Below, one piece after another: positions 11,301 to 23,300 of a DNA stretch of 64,000 nucleotides (positions are counted from its first letter, which is position 1; every line of letters starts with the position of its first letter). The notes below the pieces were generated by a model. The model was not told the DNA's origin, did not search any database, and was given only the letters and a program-made list of their open reading frames with translations. Made by a program: the position numbers and the translations under genes. Source of the stretch: Astropecten irregularis (lineage: Eukaryota; Echinodermata; Asteroidea; Paxillosida; Astropectinidae); NCBI GenBank assembly GCA_963971285.1, contig OZ020255.1, forward strand, positions 10,312,931 to 10,376,930, in the 5' to 3' direction.

Positions 11301-14300
11301 GGCCGTCAGCATCTGTGTGTGTCCGTACTTGTACTGATTCGTGAATAACCACGGTCATTTCAGGAGCTTTGAGCTCCATATTTATCGTAATTGACGGAAA
11401 TACATGTAGCACACGCGGTCAACAAAAGAACATTCAATTTCATGTAATTCAATCAAATTGATACAATTTGGCTTTTTAGAAAGATCCGGCTAGGACCGAA
11501 ACGTCAGGCCCTCAAGCATTCAATAAAATTCATACAATTTAGCCTTTTACTAAAGATCCGGCTAAAAACGAAACGTCAGACCCTCCTAATTCCAAGCATT
11601 CAATAAAATTGAAATGAATTGTGGTGATCATTGTGATGGTACACATAATGAAGTCAGCATGCATCATTTATGTAGACAAACTGAATATGATCAAATGTAT
11701 TTTGTGTACATGTACTAGAGATTTTACCCAGGTTTCTACATGCCAAAATAGTGGCATACCAGTAGAAATTGCAGACCATGAAATTAATTGCCCTGTTAAA
11801 CCTTATCACATACTGAACTCTCACACAGTATGAAATAAATACCGTTCAGTATTAAATACAGTATTAAATATCGTTCCCAGGTTGCAGCATTGCTGCATGT
11901 ATAATTGAAATGATCCTCGGGGTATGGCGGTGTGTGCATGGTTTCATGGCCACTGACTGCCAAACGAACAAAGATAATTGACTATTGGGTTCACCACCAC
12001 CGTATATAGGGCTGGATTGCTCAGTTGGTAGAGCGCCTGTACGGTATTCAGGAGGTTGCCGGTTTGAATCCCGCTCCAGTAAATTTGTCTTTGTTCACTT
12101 TTCAATGACTTTAAAATTCAGTCAGTTTCCCTTGTGGTTATTTGATGAGTATTAAATAAGACTCATTTTCACGTTTATTTCCTTTTTGAATGAGGTCTCA
12201 AACTTGTCTGCCATTTAATACCACTTTGTACTTGACTTTGTTTTCAGATATTTGTTCAGAGCTTTCCTTTACTATTCAGACACTAATTGTGAAATGGTGT
12301 CAGCTACAATTTCATATTTTGAATTTCGTATTTTTTCTTTCTGATCGCTTCAGTTCAGCCATTGCCACATTCATGATTCTTTAAAGGGAGCATATAGGAT
12401 TTGCAAGGCCTCCAAATATTTTTTATTGAGTTTGAGACAGAAAATGGACTCAACAGTTCGTAAACAGTGCAAACAGTCACCATGGGAAATCTTGGTTCAT
12501 CAGATGCTGGGTTTTTCAAGGAAATCAAGATTTAGTGTCTTTTCCAAAGAATGTTCGTCCGAACGATTTTTGGAACAAACATAAAGTAAACTATTTTTCA
12601 TGATTTATAAGAAAAATCGAGTCGGGTTTTCGCTATTTTCTTGTGACTCAGATGTCCGATTGAGCTCAAATTTTCACAGGTTTATTAGTTCATGAACATG
12701 TTGGATCAGACAAAGTATGAGTGCTGTTCTGTGACCTTTACCAATCATGTATTGTACCTGTAATTAAGTTGTCTTCAAATAACCACAAGGTAATCTAACC
12801 AGTTGGATTTATTTGAAGTCCTTGAAAAGTGAACAAAGAAAAATTGACTTGAGTGGGATTCGAACCTGCGACCCAGAAAGTTGATTGAAATTCATCAACT
12901 ACCAATACTGTACTGTAAGCTTCTTAAGCATGTTAAGGGGTAAACGACATTTTCAGTATAGTGGAATGCCACTATAACGAACACCACTATACCGAACAAT
13001 TGGCTATAACACACATCATCCTTGGCTCCCAATTTTTATGTATAATGTGTGCATGCTGAACATTGTTCACCATGACGAACAATTTCTGAGCATTCCAGTG
13101 TGTTCGTTATAGTGGCATTCCACTGTATATTGTATGATCATTTATAGACAGGTATTAGTTATTAAATACCTGTAGTCATTGCTCTAATTTATTTAAAATG
13201 CACTTGCCCTCATCACATGTGATACAGAAAACAGCTCAAGACTATTATTTTCTAAGAAATTTTCCTTTTTTTTCTTTCGGTCTTTGCAGTCCCGAGTCGT
13301 CCGGCAACAAAAGGGAGAACGTAGCTTCCACTCCTTCTACCAGTTACTGACCGGAGCAAGCGAACAGCAGCTTGGCGACTTGCAACTCCAGCGGGATATT
13401 TCTCAGTATCATTTCATCAATCAGAGCAGCGGTGAGGTAGGACACCAGACATCCGAAGACATTCAGTGCTGGACAGCTTTCTTTGTCCTCGGCTTTGGCT
13501 CTGGCTCAGGCTCCGGCTCCGGCTCCATTTCATGAATCCATTCTAAGATTATAGGTATCAAAATAGAGGCTTTTGGCTGCGGTTCAGAAGTAGATTCTCT
13601 GGTTTGAAAAAGAAAACAGAGCTTCAGCTTCAATGAAAAACCCCACAGCCTATATTTTTCAGAATATGGATTACAGAGACAAAGCCAGAGCCTGAGCCAA
13701 AGCTGAGAGCTCTCTATGGCTCCTACATGCAGTTGGTTTGGAAGCTTTCGATCAATACAGTGCACAACTTTTGACAACCTTCACCCACCAATTTACTTCT
13801 TCCTAACCCATGGAGAAAAGGGAACACTTTGACACTCACTAATCTAAACATTTTCAAAGCTTGATGTTTATATTGACATTATATACAATTTTACTTCACT
13901 TGCATTATTAGCTCAATTTGCTTAGTTGGAACAGTAAGTTTGGGATTAAAGGTAGTATCATACTTTGTTAAGAAATCAAAACAGAAATGTTCACAGATTT
14001 ACCTATAACTTACAGGGTATGAAGATGGTGGTGGTAAAAAACATACTGTTAAAACTTTTCCGCCTGAAATGGTGTATTTATCCAGAAATTAGTAAAACAA
14101 CGACCAGAAATCTTTTTGATCTTTTAAAAGATCAAAGATAGAAGAGAAAAGACTTAAGAAATAATGTGGCTGTTTTTCACTGTTTTCTCAAATAGTGGGC
14201 ACCGTATGGGACTGAAAAAATTTTCAGAGATGACTGTTACTGTATCTGTCTTGATATTTATGCCCATGAATCTGTATTTCTTTGATATAAACCAAAGTAT

Positions 14301-17300
14301 GATATACCTTTAAATTGTAGAAACTCCAAGTTCGTCTAAGTTGTTTTTAATACAAGTAATAAACTGCTGCAAACTGCTCATCAACCAAAATAATGACCTG
14401 AAATTTATTTTTTAAATGCTTGGAGTTAGGAGGGCCTGACATGTTTCAATCCTAGCAGGATCTTTATCGAGAGTACATTCCTATTTTTGTTTCTTCAGCC
14501 ATCAGCCTTCAATGATAAGAAGAATCACAAGACCACATTGGAAGCTTTGAGGGATTCAGGCTTTACTGTGGATGAACAGTCATCCATCTGGAAACTCCTA
14601 GCAGTCATCTTACATCTGGTGAGTAGGGGCATGACGTACTCCTTTCTCCAAGTTCAATAAGTCTATTTCTGGTAATGACACCAAGGATTCCTCAAAAGTT
14701 CTTGAGGCACTGTAGCTCGCAAACCTGATGAAACCTGTTAAGGAAAGATGATGAGAAGAAGATACAGTTTTAGAGGTGGGAGGAAAACCCCCAGAGTAAT
14801 ATTCTGGGTAAAACCCACAGAATCAGGCAGGGACTGAAAACCCAATCCACTTGTGGACCGAGTTGGACTTGAACCTAGTCTGCAGAGGTGAAAGGCGAGG
14901 AAAGAACCGCTACGCCAACCTGACTCCCCTAATCTCTACTAGATCTGGTGAGAAGTTCAAAGGGCCTGACGTAAACGATCTTAGCAGGATCATCCTTAAA
15001 GGCTTAATGCATGAGGACAAGAACATGCAAGTGAAGATTCACATATTAATGGATGAGAGGATCAGAACAAAGGGGACAGAGTGACCAGGGAAACAGGGAA
15101 AGCTTTCAACGGGGCTAGGGAACCACCTGGCTAGCTCTGAGGATCTACCTGGGGTGGCTGGCTTGCTCTGAGGAACTACCTGGGGTGGGCGACAAGGATG
15201 TAAAGCAGCTCCTACCCTTCCACTAGATTATGCATAGTGTACCGGCTCAAGTGAAATAGGTCGCGCCCAGTTTAATTGTACGACAAATCTTAGTCGATTT
15301 CACAAAACACTAAAGATTGATCTTACATTGTGAAACAGTTCTAAAGTCTTGTATTTTACATTTGTAGCCCAGTTATGAAAAAACCTAAAATGTGACTATC
15401 TTGTCGACATTCGTCCTCAGGGTAACATACATTTCCAGAGCGACGACAAGGAGACCTGTTCCATCAGTAATCCCGGTGAGCTATCAGCCATCACTAAGCT
15501 GCTGGACGTCAGCCGAGAGGACCTAGAGAAGGCTCTGTGCTTTCGCGTGGTCGCTGCCAAGGGAGAAGTCATGGAGAAGAGTCACACCACGGAGCAGGCC
15601 TACTACGGCAGGGACGCCTTCGGCAAGGTAAAGCTGGGCTTTAGTGTCTACCTGTCTCCCAGGATTCATTGTTTACCCTTCTGTCAAAAATTCTCAAGAC
15701 GAAATACAAAATATGATACTACTACTTTGTCGGGACCGCCGGGGCTACGTCGCGAACCAAACCTCGAATCATTGCCTTCCAGACATCCCGATCCAGCATG
15801 CAGGAGCGCAGCTCTTTAGCACTGGTGAGGCCTGTATCTCTCTTGAGCTGGTCCACGAAGGTGAGATGCCTCCTCCCGATCCAGCATGCAGGAGCACAGC
15901 TCTTCTGCACTGGTGCAAGGCCTGTATCTCTCTTGAGGTGGTCCACGAAGGTGAGATGCCTCCTCCCGATCCAGCATGCAGGAGCACAGCTCTTCTGCAC
16001 TGGTGAGGCCTGTATCTCTCTTGAGCTGGTCCACGAAGGTGAGATGCCTCCTCCCCTGAGTGGCACTGCCTTGCTTCGACTCCCACAAGATGGTCGTGCA
16101 GGCAGACAGCTCCGAATAATAGTGGGCAGAGTGTCCATTGAGCTTCAGACGGCGCTCACAGATCTTTTCTGACACTTCTTGGCATGATATTATTGATTGG
16201 TGAAACTGGTGGGTGTTCAAGAATATTCTTGAATTCAGTGAAAGAGGAGTTGCGCATATGGCTAGGGAGTTTGTTCCAAAGAGAGGGCCCAGTGGATTAA
16301 ACCAAAATAATGATCTGACAGAAGTTTGACAAGGGCCAAATACTTACAAGGGCCTTTCTCAAAGCTTGGTTCAGGCTCCGGCTCCCGCTCCGGCTCCCGC
16401 TCCGGCTCCATTTCGTGGATCCATTTTAAAATTACGGGTATCGAACTGAATACTTTTGCTGTGGTTTGGAAGTAGATTCTTTGGTTTGAATAAGAAAACA
16501 GAGTTTCAGCTTCATTTTAAAACCACAACCTATATTTTCAACATTTGGAATGCAGAGACGAAGCCGGAGCCGAGCTTTGAGAAATGCCCTTTGTTATTAA
16601 AAAGATTTTGAACCACCATGTACATAGCACTAGTACTCTTTATTTTGTTTGACCTTTTGTCTCAGGCCATATATGAAAGACTGTTCACCTGGATCGTTGG
16701 CAAGATAAACAGTGCTATTGAGGTACGGGGTACCAGTCTGGAGCACGGGAAGAACACGGTCATCGGTGTGCTGGATATCTATGGCTTTGAAATCTTTGAT
16801 GACAACAGGTAAGTTGGGCTAAGTTTTTCTCCGTGCGCTCAGAGGCTATGGCTACAGTATGTCTTCTCCAAACTGAATTCAGCAAATCCTTTGAAAATTA
16901 ATCTGGCTTGGTCATTGAAAGGAGAACAAAGAATGTTGACTGGAGCTGGATTCGAACCAGTGACTTCTGTAATACCGTACCAGCGCTCTTACCAACTGAG
17001 CTTTCCAGCCATATGTTGGCAGTGTCCCTAATACCGGGGGTAGTCTATTATCTTTGTTCGCTTGGCAGTCAGAAGCCATGAAACCACTCACATATCGCTA
17101 TATCACAAGGATCATTTGAGATGCAGTCAACATTAGCAACGCTGTAAACCTGAGAAACGTTTTATCAGGGATCACTCAAATCCCACTCCGGTCAATTTTC
17201 TTTGTTCACTTTTCTATCTATGACCCCAATTATTTTGTTTGGAGTTAGGAGGGCCTGATGCTTTTTGATCCTAACAGGATCTTTATCAAACGATTCGATA

Positions 17301-20300
17301 AAGGATCCTGTTAGGGTCGAAATGCGTCAGGCCGTCCTTACTCCAAGTATTTTTTATCAATTTCAGGTCATTACTTTGGCGGATTGCAGCAGTTTATTAC
17401 TTGTATCGATCCAAATTATTTTGTTACACATAAAGTCTTCTGACTGCCAAATGAACAAAGATAATTGACTATTAGGGATTGCCAATAAAGGGCTGGATGT
17501 ATAGCTCAGTTGGTAGATAAGAGCACCTGTACGGTATTCAGGAGGTCGCCGGTTCGAATCCCGCTCCAGTCAATTTTTCTTTGTTCACTTTTCAATGACT
17601 TTAAATTCAGTCAGTTTCCCTTGTGGTTATTTGATGATTAGGATCTTTATCAAAAGCTTTGATAAAGATCCTGCTAGGATCGAAACGCGTCAGGCCGTCC
17701 TTACTCCAAGTATTGTATCATTTTCAGGTCATTATTTTGGCAGGTTGGAGCGGTTTATTACTTGTATTGTTCCAAATTATTTTGTTAGACATAAAGACAG
17801 GTAGCTAGATGAGACTCTCTCTCACACACATTTTCTGCAATATCATTTATCCCTACTTGGCAGGATAAATTCTCTCACCATTTCCTTCAATTTTCAATAT
17901 CAAATTATTTAGGCACAGTATAATGGTAAGATTTACAGTTCTCAGTATTATTTTCGACAAGTAACTTTATAAAGGTAAATTGGTCAGGTTCGCTAAGTTA
18001 CAAATAAATGAAACAGTACTAAGGTAAAAATGCTCAGTCATGGCAATATCATAAATTTGGCATTGTGATGGGTAAAGGGACAAACGTCAACAAGAGTTTG
18101 ACTGGTCCGTGAGCGTTTTGACTGGCATTTGGCCACCGGACCAGTGTTATGTTTGAATCCTGCATACTGATATTTAAGATCTTCTTCTGTCTTTTCAGTT
18201 TTGAGCAGTTCTGCATCAACTACTGCAATGAGAAGCTACAACAGCTGTTCATCATGCTGGTCCTGAAGCAGGAACAAGAGGAGTACCAGAGGGAAGGCAT
18301 CGAGTGGGTCAACGTGGAGTACTTCAACAATCGCATCATCTGTGACCTGGTAGAGGAGCCTCATAAGGGCATCATGTCTGTCCTGGATGAAGCTTGCTTG
18401 AATGTGGGCAAGGTGACGGATAAGGTAGGTGAGAGTGCAGGATGGTTTAAGGGAAGGTTTACTTCCCGAGTCCGGAGTCAAGGATGACTTTGAAGCTATG
18501 CATGGTGGAAGTACATGTTAGTGAAGGTGGTTTGGGTCAGATGAGATGAAGTCGAAGATGTTCAAGGAAAGAAAATGCAGATTACATGTAGGTAGGAAAG
18601 TAGGGTAGATGTCAAGGATGGAAGTTATTGATCAGTCAAGAAGGATTTTAGGGTAGTCATGTAATGAGCACCTGATAAAAGCTAACTTGTAGAAGCCCAT
18701 TTTGCAAAGACAGTAAACTCATAATGTACTACCTTATTTTATAAAAGCCTGAAAAAAAGACAGAACAAGGCTTGTCATCAAGATGACACTTTCAAGTTCT
18801 TCTGCAGAATGAGCTTGATTGAAACTTGGATGAATCTTGGAAGAAACTGACTTTTTCTTCTCTGGTCACTACACAAGTCCTGTCCAGTGAAGGGTACAAG
18901 ATATGGCTTTGGTGTTGAGAGACTCCAGATCTTTGGCAGTGCATGGCTCTGGTAGGAGGGGGCAGACCAAAAGGTTTTGTATTGTCTGATCTTCCCCACA
19001 CTTACAGGTAGTCGTAATTTCTCCATCCCTATTGTAGCCCCTGACTGATTTTTGACATTCTTTGTTGTGTCGTTGTGGCAGATGTTCCTTGAAGCCATGA
19101 ACCAGAAGCTGTCCAGCCATCCGCACTACACCAGCCGGGGCCTGGAGCCAGCCGATAAGACGCTAGAACACGACAGAGACTTCCGCGTCAAGCACTATGC
19201 AGGCGACGTCATGTGAGTTGCTCTGTTATAATAATAATAATAATGATTTGGGAGGCTAATCATCCTTACTCGAAGCTGGGGTGCTGAATTGCGAAGGATG
19301 CGGCTACAACGTGATGGAGTAGCAGGCTTTCATGGGCGCCTTGGCTGCCAGCCATATCAACCCATATATGATCACGGAGCACAGCCTAATTAAGATCGAA
19401 AGTGTTTGATTTTTCAGTCATCATATTCAGTCATCTGTAATCAACTGATTGTTATCAGTTATTTCCTTGGATTATTGAATAAGGGAGAGAAACTCTAATA
19501 CTGGTCGGGCCAAGCCATTGATAAGCCAGGCCAGGCCTGGGCCTTCAGGCCTGAAATCCTCTTCTTGTCAGCACTGAACTTCACTACGATTGAACTGCTC
19601 CGAATCAGTCAGGATACCTATTTTCATACAGTTGAACGGGGCAGTGAATTAGTACGAAAATTAGTTCTTATAGGAATATTAGTCCGCTGGGCGGAGGGTT
19701 TTATTGGTGAAAGGTCCAGTGGTCCAAAAGGCAGGCCGGGGTAATAGTCGCCATATGCATATTGACAGACAACTACAATCATTATTGTTCAGCCAACCAT
19801 TATATGATATATTTAATTATTATACAGTATGTTCAGTTCTCCCGTTTACCCAAAGAGCTCACTTGAGCAAGACCATAATGTACGAGATGTTCTTTTTATG
19901 CAATGCTTCAATTAAGCTATGAATATTTGTAGGGTTTTCCAGAGTAATTTCTTTTCTCAGGGAGTTTTGATCTCTGGTTTTTCACCACGCAAGTGTAGTG
20001 TATGTTTATGAATGAATCGAAGTTCAAACATGTTTACACATCGAGTGTCAATAAATTGGGTCCCGCACATCTGTCGGTAGGCCCTCCCAAAGTTGTAAGC
20101 AGTTTGTATGCTTGTAAGCAGTTTGTATGTTGTAAGAACCCAAGAGCCTATGCAAAGTCCAGGCCTGGTGTGGCTTTTCAGTGGCAGGGCCCAGCCGGTA
20201 TTTCTCTCCCTAAAGCTATTTCCTTTTTTATCCAACCGAACTTGACAGCTGTATCAGACTTCAAGAAAGATTTGAGACTTTGCATTGTGGCAATTGGTAT

Positions 20301-23300
20301 GTGGATCGATTTGCGGAAACACCATGTAACAATCATTCGTACTTTCCCACTTCAAATTTCACTCTCCTGAGGACGAACTGTTCGAAACGTGTAGATAATA
20401 CCAACAGTTTTTCTCAGAACCACACACTCTCACAGAAGAGATTACATGGTGTTACCGCAAACCTACCTTCTTTTTACTTCAAATGTCGTTTACACTTCTC
20501 GTAAGGTCTCAACGTTCTGACTAGCCTTCTCTATTCATCATCAGGTCTCCTGATGATGATTAAAGCAGGCAAATCGAAATGTTGAGACCTTATGAGAAGT
20601 GCGAAAGTACAAACTGGATTCTTGGTATTTCCGCAAACCGATCCACATGTATCAGACTTACAAAATATAAACTCTTTCCAGAGTTTCATCTGTTTCACAA
20701 GTTATTACTTTTTGTTTGTGGTGTATTTGTCTGCAGGTATGACGTGAACGGTTTCATTTACAAGAACAAGGACACACTCTTTCAGGACTTCAAGAGACTT
20801 TTGTTCCTCAGTTCCAACCCGGTCATCTCTGAGATGTGGCCAGAGGGACAGATGAAAATGACCGAGGTAAGAGAAACTCTTTCTGAGAAACTTTTTGATG
20901 TTCAAATACAGCACAAAAAGCACTGATGACAAATTGAACTCAAATTGCCTCATCACATGATAATAATAATAAACCGTTTTTATATAGCGCATATCACAAT
21001 GAACGTATGACGTCTCTATGCGCGTATTACTATTATCCCTGGTCATTGGGCTACAAATAAGTTACATTCCTGAAACAATCTCAACTCCCTGGGGAGTATA
21101 CAGCCCTGGCTGCCGTATTCAGCGCACAGAGGCTAATCAAACCACAAAGCCTTTTCTACCCTCGCAGGTACCCATTAATACCTGGGTGAAGAGGAGCAAT
21201 ATGTGACAAAGCGTCTTGCCCAAGGACGCAAGCACCATTAACCCATGGCTGGATTCGAACCCACAATCGGTAGATTGACCACAAGACTTTGAGTTCAACA
21301 CGTCAGACCGCTAGGCCACAGCACTCCACGATGCAGAATTTGTAGGAATCGTGGAGATAACCGTCTGATCTGCTAGTGCTAATCTTAGTTGCAAATAGAC
21401 ACATTTATTTGCAGATATTATTTTGTTTTGTGTGGAATGTAGGTGACCAAGAGACCCCTGACAGCCGGTACGATATTCAAGAACTCCATGATAGAACTTG
21501 TGAAGAATTTGGCCTCCAAGGTAAATCAAATCTTCGTTTTGTCTTCAATTATTTGTCTTCAATCACAAGCGATGCACAACACATGGAAATTTGGTTGTTT
21601 TTATGAAGGTAGAAATTTCATGGTTGGCAAATTTGTGTGCTAAGCAGGGAACAGAAACAGACATCATAGTACATTTTTCCACTTCCTTTTAGTGAACTGC
21701 TGTCATCAACTCAGGAGCAAGTCTGATATTTCTGTCAAATTTTGTAAAAGCAATGAGCTTCAGAATTATGCACAGATTTTTCTGAATAAAACAAAAAGGA
21801 GGATCTAGAAGTTATATAACACATCTATATATAGATGTGTTATATCTATCAAATTATTTATTACAACTGAAGTCACTCAAAGCATCCAATTGTTCACAGG
21901 AGATTTAAAACTAGATGTTTGCACGCCCACCGTGACCAAGTCATTGTCTGGGATCAGTCAGTTTTCACCATACAGAATAGTGTGGCAGTTATCCAGCTTT
22001 GTAGTTAAATTTAAGAGTTATATAGGGCTTCATTGTTTCACTAAGCGCATGGGGAAATTCTTTAGAATGAAAATATAGCTCCAGTTACCATGGCAACCAA
22101 TGCTGCCGCAACCGTCCGCATTTTTTTCCAAACCATCAATGTATCTAGTATCCTGCCTCTCTCACACACCATCCTTATGCTGTTCCCTCCTCAGGAACCG
22201 TACTATGTCCGTTGCATCAAGCCTAATGAGGCCAAGTCTCCGTTGTTGTTTGATGCCGAGCGATGCCTTCATCAAGTCCGGTACCTGGGATTGGTGGAGA
22301 ATGTGAGAGTGAGGCGAGCTGGCTTTGCCTCGCGTCAACACTACTCACGCTTCTTACAAAGGTATGACAGAACCATGTATACAGTCATAATTTAGGGCGT
22401 GATTGTCAGATGCAAAGGATTGCCTTGGTGCCCCTGGTCATGGTCTTGGTGCCCCTGGTCATTGCCTTGGTGCCCCTGGTCATTGCCTTGGTGCCCCTGG
22501 TCATTGCCTTGGTGTCCCTGGTCATTGCCTGGGTGTCTCTAGTCATTGCCCAGGTGTCCCTGGTCATTGCCTTGGTACCCCTTGGGCCAATTTCATAGAG
22601 CTGCTTAAGCAAATTTCCTTAAGCATGAAAAGTCTTCCTTGAACAAACAGGATTGCCAACCAAATTTTTGTAAGATGTTTTCTGCCTTTGACTTGTATTC
22701 GGCCATTGTTTGCTTAGCATAATATTTATGTGTTTTGGCTGGCATATACTTATTGTATTTACCAAGGTTTTTGGTGCTTAATAAGCAGTTCTTTGAGATT
22801 GGCCCGAGGTCATTGCCTTGGTGCCCCTGGTCATTGCCTTGGTGCCCCTGGTCATGAACTTGGTGCCTCTGGTCATGGACTTGGTGCCCATAGTCATTGC
22901 CTTGTTGCCCCTGGTTATGGTCTTGGTGCCCCTGGTCATTGGCTCGGTGCCTCTGGTCATTGCCTTGGTGTCTCTAGTCATTGCCTTGGTGCCCCTGGTC
23001 ATTTTAGTTGTGTTCCCTGGCGAATGCCTTAAAAGCCCTTGGTTATATTCTTGGTGCCCATCGCAACTGCGTTGGTGCCCCTGGCTGTTTGCTTCAGTGC
23101 TCTTGGTCACTGCCCTGCAGCTGATTTCACGAAATGTTGCATAACTTACGCAATATACAAATGTTACGTAAGTTTCTTGAAACGGGCATAACTTGTGCAA
23201 CCAAAGGCAGGAAAATGTTGCGCAAGTTACGCAACAAATGAAGTTTCTTGAAATTGGCTGCTGATGTCCTTGATAATTCCTTGAAGTTTGAACTAACAAC

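What the first reader, a model, noticed from the sequence alone, without database searches (positions are those of the whole stretch)
20544..20589. Hammerhead-ribozyme-like motif with an intact catalytic core in a MYO1D intron
The plus strand has, in the right order, six-pair stem I (GGTCTC/GAGACC), CTGATGA, a stem-loop, GAAA and the cleavage triplet GTT. Stem I is perfect, which is not expected of decayed sequence. The only departure from the consensus is one extra base before stem II. Minimal type I hammerheads with almost no stem III are known from Penelope-like elements and work as dimers. The same orientation as MYO1D transcription means the pre-mRNA carries it.
Basis: partly seen in the sequence, partly recalled or inferred. 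Interest (0 to 1): 0.7.

Follow-up and report, generated by a model that had tools for sequence, protein, structure and literature searches.

The report
Fossil hammerhead ribozyme in palindromic retroelement
The short intron motif is a decayed copy of what looks like a real self-cutting RNA carried by a small, very abundant jumping element; at this spot it is probably switched off, because the element sits as a mirror-image pair that would fold into one long hairpin.

Summary
The motif is present as described: a strict hammerhead descriptor finds it once in the window and never in 150 dinucleotide shuffles, both strands. It belongs to a repeat family ("A") whose majority sequence is a minimal type I hammerhead: stem I GGTCTC/GAGACC, CTGATGA, one extra base, 6-bp stem II, GAAA, almost no stem III, GTT. 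The core occurs 2,145 + 2,084 times in this genome at up to 3 mismatches, reversed control 0. Stem pairs co-vary across six chosen copies of four hammerhead families, but not within family A. The element looks like a non-autonomous Penelope-like retroelement: mostly two monomers head to head, a tail on exactly one end in 39 of 50 palindromes, direct flanking repeats of 8-16 nt at 25 of 63 copies. In the window it spans 20262-20647, with a second hammerhead element ("D") inserted. Here the ribozyme is one arm of a hairpin with 53-nt arms; forcing the ribozyme fold costs about 39 kcal/mol, and stem II is partly decayed. I read it as a fossil without a role in MYO1D. Cleavage is untested. Four of five D loci fetched also carry a histone 3' stem-loop above Rfam's cut-off.

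The parts
20544..20589 (+). Hammerhead motif of family A: stem I 20544-20549/20584-20589, CTGATGA 20550-20556, extra T 20557, stem II 20558-20561/20572-20575, GAAA 20576-20579, predicted cleavage 20583|20584
20262..20647 (+). Whole family A element: two monomers head to head, tail-bearing 3' end on the left (20262-20297), tail-less 3' end on the right
20250..20261 (.). Left direct repeat TGTATCAGACTT, probable target-site duplication
20648..20659 (.). Right direct repeat TGTATCAGACTT, probable target-site duplication
20493..20545 (.). Left palindrome arm; on the minus strand it holds most of the mirror copy of the hammerhead, whose upstream letters no longer pair as stem I and whose GAAA reads AGAA
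20549..20601 (.). Right palindrome arm, 83% complementary to the left, 3-nt loop; holds most of the hammerhead motif
20361..20475 (+). Monomer of sister family D inserted in the left half, flanked by the 12-nt repeat ACTTCAAAT[T/G]TC (20349-20360, 20476-20487); its hammerhead remnant CTGAGGA..GAAACGTG at 20367-20391 lacks 9 nt of stem II and has G at the cleavage site
20401..20445 (+). Decayed histone 3' stem-loop-like segment of the family D insert (19.9 bits, cut-off 34)
   Evidence: above cut-off in L129-L132
20738..20869 (+). Next exon of the MYO1D-like myosin I gene
   Evidence: (Myosin_head 25.2 bits, below its cut-off of 33.3)

Best explanation
The motif is a decayed genomic copy of a minimal type I hammerhead ribozyme at the 5' end of a short non-autonomous retroelement (family A), probably moved by a Penelope-type reverse transcriptase/endonuclease. 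In intact copies (inferred, not shown) the RNA cuts after GUU, before GAGACC, and probably works as a dimer because the stem III remnant ACGU is self-complementary; head-to-tail arrays such as the 21-unit array at C1:3.25 Mb would be natural substrates. New copies arise by target-primed reverse transcription (inferred); priming on both strands of one target would give two monomers meeting at their 5' ends, hence palindromes with 3' ends outward, a tail on one side and flanking duplications. The window copy is such a palindrome. In its RNA the ribozyme half pairs with its mirror half, so it should not cleave, and it is an intron fossil without a host role.
For: Motif versus shuffles 1:0. Family majority is a full hammerhead core with 6-bp stems I and II; 2145+2084 genomic matches, control 0; 668+636 matches to a pattern that leaves stem II free, control 0. 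Four hammerhead families in the genome with different but paired stems: 12 both-side changes versus 4.6 in shuffles, 0 of 500 as high. Head-to-tail arrays. Monomers starting near (G)TCTC|CTGATGA. Direct repeats >=8 nt at 25 of 63 copies versus 0.95% of mismatched flank pairs; tail on exactly one side in 39 of 50 palindromes. Head-to-head inverted pLTRs, an optional 31-bp tail on one of them and 8-10-bp duplications are described for Penelope (PMC3846280, passages); a Penelope-like protein cuts and extends both strands (PMC11167929, passages). A Penelope-like ORF family is present. Palindrome fold -69.2 kcal/mol, ribozyme penalty 39.
Against: No Rfam hammerhead match at the locus at E<=10; only sub-threshold RF00008 (28 bits, cut-off 48.5) in the array L059. 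No covariation above shuffles inside family A. Co-folding two A motifs gave one extended duplex, not a double hammerhead, so dimer action rests on analogy. No family A or D ends beside the 30 GIY-YIG loci (at least two of them, L078 and L079, are not Penelope-like) or beside two divergent Penelope-like ORFs. 38 of 63 copies show no direct repeat >=8 nt, among them 12 of 13 monomers. Three monomers share about 30 nt more upstream of the hammerhead, so the 5' end is not fixed there. No cleavage data.
Confidence: 0.8

Rival explanations
1. The motif at this locus is still an active ribozyme that cuts MYO1D pre-mRNA, for instance as a dimer with another copy in trans.
For: Core letters and stem I intact; in the right half alone the ribozyme fold is only 1.4 kcal/mol above the MFE.
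Against: Penalty of 39.2 kcal/mol in the palindrome and 36.9 in the whole element; the apex hairpin would form before GAGACC is transcribed (inference); stem II has only 4 pairs with a 10-nt loop; the stem III remnant AUGU pairs with itself only with the help of two G-U pairs.
Confidence: 0.06
2. Chance: the tip of a palindromic DNA repeat happens to look like a hammerhead.
For: CTGATGA and part of stem I lie at the palindrome apex; Rfam's only matches over the motif are non-hammerhead models far below their cut-offs, mostly miRNA hairpins.
Against: The core and both stems are kept in non-palindromic monomers and head-to-tail arrays; the sister family and two further families keep core and pairing with other letters; 0 hits in shuffles.
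Confidence: 0.06
3. A miniature inverted-repeat DNA transposon moved by a transposase, with the hammerhead carried as cargo.
For: Long inverted repeats with flanking duplications look like a foldback element.
Against: Duplications vary from 8 to 16 nt and ends are unequal (tail on one side); single non-palindromic monomers exist, two of them with a duplication of their own (L076; L071 by eye); 5' junctions vary.
Confidence: 0.07

Closest known systems
Minimal type I hammerheads of Penelope-like elements (Luense et al. 2017 and Cervera & de la Pena 2014, neither held here: content recalled, titles seen in reference lists; review PMC6155905, passages)
   Same: Type I order, CTGANGA and GAAA core, stem III nearly absent, retroelement setting, dimer action proposed
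   Different: Extra base between A9 and stem II (I could not check whether theirs have it); no ORF; many copies in head-to-head palindromes
Non-autonomous metazoan retrozymes (PMC7229834: abstract, introduction, first third of the results, passages)
   Same: Small, non-coding, type I hammerhead, tandem arrays, target-site duplications
   Different: The two arrays seen have units of about 54 and 85 bp instead of 150-450; among the copies examined palindromes and monomers prevail; circular RNA not examined
Penelope elements with inverted pseudo-LTRs and tail (PMC3846280, passages)
   Same: Head-to-head inverted repeats, optional 31-bp tail on one side (here 34-36 nt), short target-site duplications
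   Different: No reverse transcriptase or GIY-YIG frame recognised around the family A copies examined
Viroid hammerhead with an extra core nucleotide (De la Pena & Flores 2001; title in the reference list of PMC6155905; position of the base recalled)
   Same: One extra nucleotide next to stem II
   Different: Viroid, other sequence

Membership tests
Minimal type I hammerhead ribozyme | Conserved core CUGANGA ... GAAA ... UH in order | tested here: met
   window copy; family: all core letters in 44 of the 58 aligned copies
Minimal type I hammerhead ribozyme | Stems I and II paired, with compensatory change | tested here: met
   Across families: 94.4% of cells paired, covariation 0/500 shuffles (6 chosen copies); in loci taken from 20 of the 100 places listed, stem II has 4 contiguous bp in 7 of 9 B and 2 of 5 C copies that fit my family patterns. 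Within family A: not above shuffles
Minimal type I hammerhead ribozyme | No insertion between A9 and stem II (the textbook core; recalled) | tested here: not met
   One extra base in all 58 aligned rows, chosen at 46 nt; variant without it 0 hits at <=1 mismatch; B and C copies L110, L115, L116 also have one
Minimal type I hammerhead ribozyme | Rfam hammerhead covariance score above gathering | tested here: not met
   no hammerhead match either in L060, an intact copy
Minimal type I hammerhead ribozyme | Self-cleavage, as a dimer | not testable with these tools
   needs in vitro transcription; co-folding did not show the double hammerhead
Penelope-like element | Head-to-head inverted repeats, one-sided tail, short variable target-site duplications | tested here: met
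   one-sided tail in 39 of 50 palindromes; >=8-nt direct repeat at 25 of 63 copies versus 0.95% of control pairs
Penelope-like element | RT + GIY-YIG ORF between the repeats | tested here: not met
   Frames of 130+ aa within 1.5 kb in L048-L077: 10 of the 14 printed searched in Pfam, no RT or GIY-YIG; of the other four, three are near copies of one searched. The element is at best non-autonomous
Metazoan retrozyme | Multimeric units of 150-450 bp with circular RNA | tested here: inconclusive
   arrays of about 54- and 85-bp units; circular RNA not testable
DNA transposon MITE | Equal terminal inverted repeats and fixed-length target duplication | tested here: not met

The most novel reading that the evidence does not exclude
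This genome holds a lineage of miniature Penelope-dependent elements whose RNA is bounded by two processing signals. Family A uses a 5'-terminal hammerhead. Its sister D, homologous in the hammerhead and the 3' end and nested in the window copy, has the hammerhead followed, about 14 nt downstream of its cleavage site, by a histone 3' stem-loop with a purine-rich downstream element, so its RNA could be trimmed by the ribozyme and by, or be bound through, the SLBP/U7 histone machinery, tying retroposition to S phase. Alternatively the stem-loop is the reverse transcriptase's landing site and only mimics histone mRNA.
Probability: 0.15. Interest if true: 0.78.

Novelty: new member of a known kind. 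Interest (0 to 1): 0.45.

Why it matters
A tool-less reading picked out a hammerhead family with thousands of copies that Rfam's hammerhead models did not report above cut-off in the stretches tried. Its head-to-head copies with a one-sided tail are a large natural record of how Penelope-type retrotransposition may prime both strands. If family D's histone-like stem-loop works, it would be a retroelement that borrows the replication-dependent histone 3'-end machinery, which is directly testable.

Tried and rejected
Rfam at gathering and at E<=10: no hammerhead at the locus; the matches over the motif are other models below their cut-offs, mostly miRNA hairpins. Genome search with RF00163 rang nowhere, controls included, so it is uninformative. 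The search for an autonomous partner found a Penelope-like ORF family (GIY-YIG above, RVT_1 just below its cut-off; 76 matches) but no family A or D ends beside the 30 GIY-YIG loci (empty output; repeated with two positive controls, both found) or beside two divergent Penelope-like ORFs (chance-level matches only). The L091 locus has a degenerate hammerhead-like GATCCTGCTAGGATCGAAACGCGTC (by eye). Covariation within family A: not above shuffles. A first family-mapping script timed out. A Myosin_TH1 domain was not found in the window; the MYO1D-like identity rests on motor and neck exons and other class I myosins were not compared. A transposase with these ends was not searched for. Papers: the listings (10 rows each, titles and abstract starts) showed none on a histone stem-loop in a transposable element.

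Full report
Check of the observation. The letters are as reported. A hammerhead descriptor (stem I of 6 or more Watson-Crick pairs, CTGANGA, 0-1 extra base, stem II of 4 or more, GAAA, 0-6 nt, UH) finds exactly this place in the 64-kb window and nothing in 150 dinucleotide shuffles on both strands; a relaxed descriptor gives the same 1 versus 0. Rfam finds no hammerhead at the locus, even at E up to 10.

What surrounds it. The motif lies in the right arm of a palindrome (arms 20493-20545 and 20549-20601, 83% complementary, 3-nt loop), so CTGATGA is one side of the apex hairpin and GAGACC is also the partner of GGTCTC in the left arm. Around it is a repeat whose relatives occur across the genome (98 matches, with only 40 of 2,898 first-look candidates scored). 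I fetched 39 of those places and 30 loci through a core pattern (six of them are one array and two overlap). The majority of rows read GGTCTC CTGATGA N GACTAG AGCAGG CTAGTC GAAA CGTT GAGACC: a minimal type I hammerhead with 6-bp stems I and II, an extra base before stem II, and a stem III reduced to AC/GU. The window copy matches 41 of 46 letters. It lost two stem II pairs and carries U-A instead of C-G at a third; the stem III remnant is AUGU instead of ACGU.

How common and how real. The 35-place core occurs 2,145 + 2,084 times with up to 3 mismatches, reversed control 0 + 0. A pattern leaving stem II free occurs 668 + 636 times, control 0 + 0; all but five of the 100 places listed there have the standard length (by eye). 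A version without the extra base occurs 0 times at up to 1 mismatch. Of 58 aligned copies, 44 keep every core letter. These 58 were chosen from 145 extracted stretches for being 46 nt long and holding the 5' half; copies fetched by the core pattern were left out except nine of the 21 units of array L059. Within these 58, paired changes are not above shuffles: 2 pairs changed on both sides, shuffled mean 1.2, 179 of 500 as high. Recent copies that decay neutrally would give this, but it means that within-family covariation does not support the ribozyme.

Other families in the same genome give the stronger test. CTGATGA-N{10,30}-CGAAACGTC occurs 172 + 183 times, control 0 + 3, and includes, besides family A copies, two other hammerheads, B and C. 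I fetched 20 of the 100 listed places. Of the copies in them that fit my family patterns, stem II has 4 contiguous pairs in 7 of 9 B and 2 of 5 C copies. The stretch 20354-20482 of the window holds a fourth family, D: CTCTC CTGAGGA C GAACAG AGCACA CTGTTC G(G/A)AAC GTC GAGA. Most listed D copies have GGAA where the core wants GAAA (GAAA in 8 of the 100 listed places), so most D ribozymes may be impaired. The A and D hammerheads are similar enough to align by BLAST (76% over 42 nt, E 0.001). Aligning six copies (two A, one D, one B, two C) in hammerhead register, with stem II cut to its first four pairs, gives 94.4% paired cells (shuffled mean 73.7), 12 both-side changes (4.6) and a covariation score above all 500 shuffles; the number of further pair types is not above shuffles (303 of 500); slid controls pair at 22-44%. 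The six were picked as good examples, which favours the result.

What the element is. Besides palindromes there are single monomers that start near (G)TCTC|CTGATGA and end near CCACATACC; three of them (L049, L069, L075) share about 30 nt more upstream, so a longer 5' form exists. There are head-to-tail arrays: 21 units of about 54 bp at C1:3.25 Mb (core CTGATGA intact in 20 of 21) and 85-bp units at C25:1.807 Mb. Palindromes are two monomers with their 5' ends together, with variable junctions and sometimes filler. A tail of 34-36 nt follows the common 3' end on exactly one side in 39 of 50 palindromes, on both in 1, on neither in 10. Direct repeats of 8 or more letters flank 25 of 63 copies against 0.95% of mismatched flank pairs; by kind this is 24 of 50 palindromes and 1 of 13 monomers (in monomer L071 an 11-nt repeat is visible by eye). 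The window copy has TGTATCAGACTT on both sides. Inverted head-to-head repeats, an optional 31-bp tail on one of them and 8-10-bp duplications are reported for Penelope elements (PMC3846280, passages read); there self-priming on an antisense template was proposed for the palindromes. A Penelope-like protein of Anolis cuts and extends both strands and starts reverse transcription at two sites whose interval is the tail (PMC11167929, passages read). I therefore favour priming on both strands of one target, each on its own RNA, with the two cDNAs joined at their 5'-end copies; this is inference, and the self-priming model is not excluded.

Sister element nested in the window copy. The D monomer 20361-20475 sits in the left half, flanked by ACTTCAAATTTC and ACTTCAAATGTC. 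A and D share the 3' end and tail (E 4e-7). D copies contain a histone 3' UTR stem-loop plus purine-rich downstream segment that passes Rfam's gathering score of 34 in L129, L130, L131 and L132 (34.7-39.8 bits); of the five D loci fetched, L128 gave none. The joint stretch from the ribozyme cleavage site through the stem-loop occurs 676 + 678 times at up to 3 mismatches, control 0 + 0. The window copy of it is decayed (19.9 bits).

Does the window ribozyme work? The palindrome folds at -69.2 kcal/mol (z -12.8). Forcing the ribozyme costs 39.2 kcal/mol in the palindrome and 36.9 in the whole element, but 1.4 in the right half alone, 2.2 in monomer L060 and 0.6-2.3 in array context. Co-folding two motifs gave an extended duplex rather than a double hammerhead, so the dimer step rests on analogy with published minimal hammerheads. 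With a 4-bp stem II and a weak stem III on top, activity at this locus is unlikely. The host gene is a MYO1D-like class I myosin on the same strand: exon 20738-20869 matches a myosin I in the PDB (E 2.9e-4) and Myosin_head (E 6e-6, 25.2 bits, below its cut-off), and further exons follow to about 24.6 kb (query recalled from memory). Nothing found suggests use by the gene.

Verdict. A true observation with a partly right reading: a minimal hammerhead family of Penelope-like kind, of which this copy is a fossil locked in a hairpin. Not tested: cleavage, expression, circular RNA, other species, the autonomous partner.

Noticed in passing
window 20401-20445; L129-L132: Sister element D carries a histone 3' stem-loop with a purine-rich downstream element (Rfam RF00032, 34.7-39.8 bits, cut-off 34) just downstream of its hammerhead cleavage site; 1,354 genomic places hold the joint stretch at up to 3 mismatches. 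Decayed in the window copy.
   Followed up: partly
L059 451-1599 (G000:C1:3.2509-3.2520 Mb): Head-to-tail array of 21 hammerhead units of about 54 bp, 20 of 21 with CTGATGA intact.
   Followed up: partly
L110, L115 and other loci L108-L127: Two further hammerhead families (B, C) with GTC cleavage site and an extra A before stem II; B seems to have an internal loop in stem I as canonical type I hammerheads do (by eye).
   Followed up: partly
L091 2133-2157: Degenerate hammerhead-like stem (GATCCTGCTAGGATCGAAACGCGTC) downstream of a Penelope-like RT + GIY-YIG frame.
   Followed up: partly
L049, L069, L075 upstream of the hammerhead: Three monomers share about 30 nt (..AAGGACCTCACAT..CTCATTTCAATC) before GTCTCCTGATGA: a longer 5' form of family A.
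   Followed up: no
window 12010-12082 (+), 16937-17010 (-), 17495-17572 (+): Three tRNA-like matches above Rfam's cut-off within 6 kb; possibly tRNA genes or tRNA-derived repeats.
   Followed up: no
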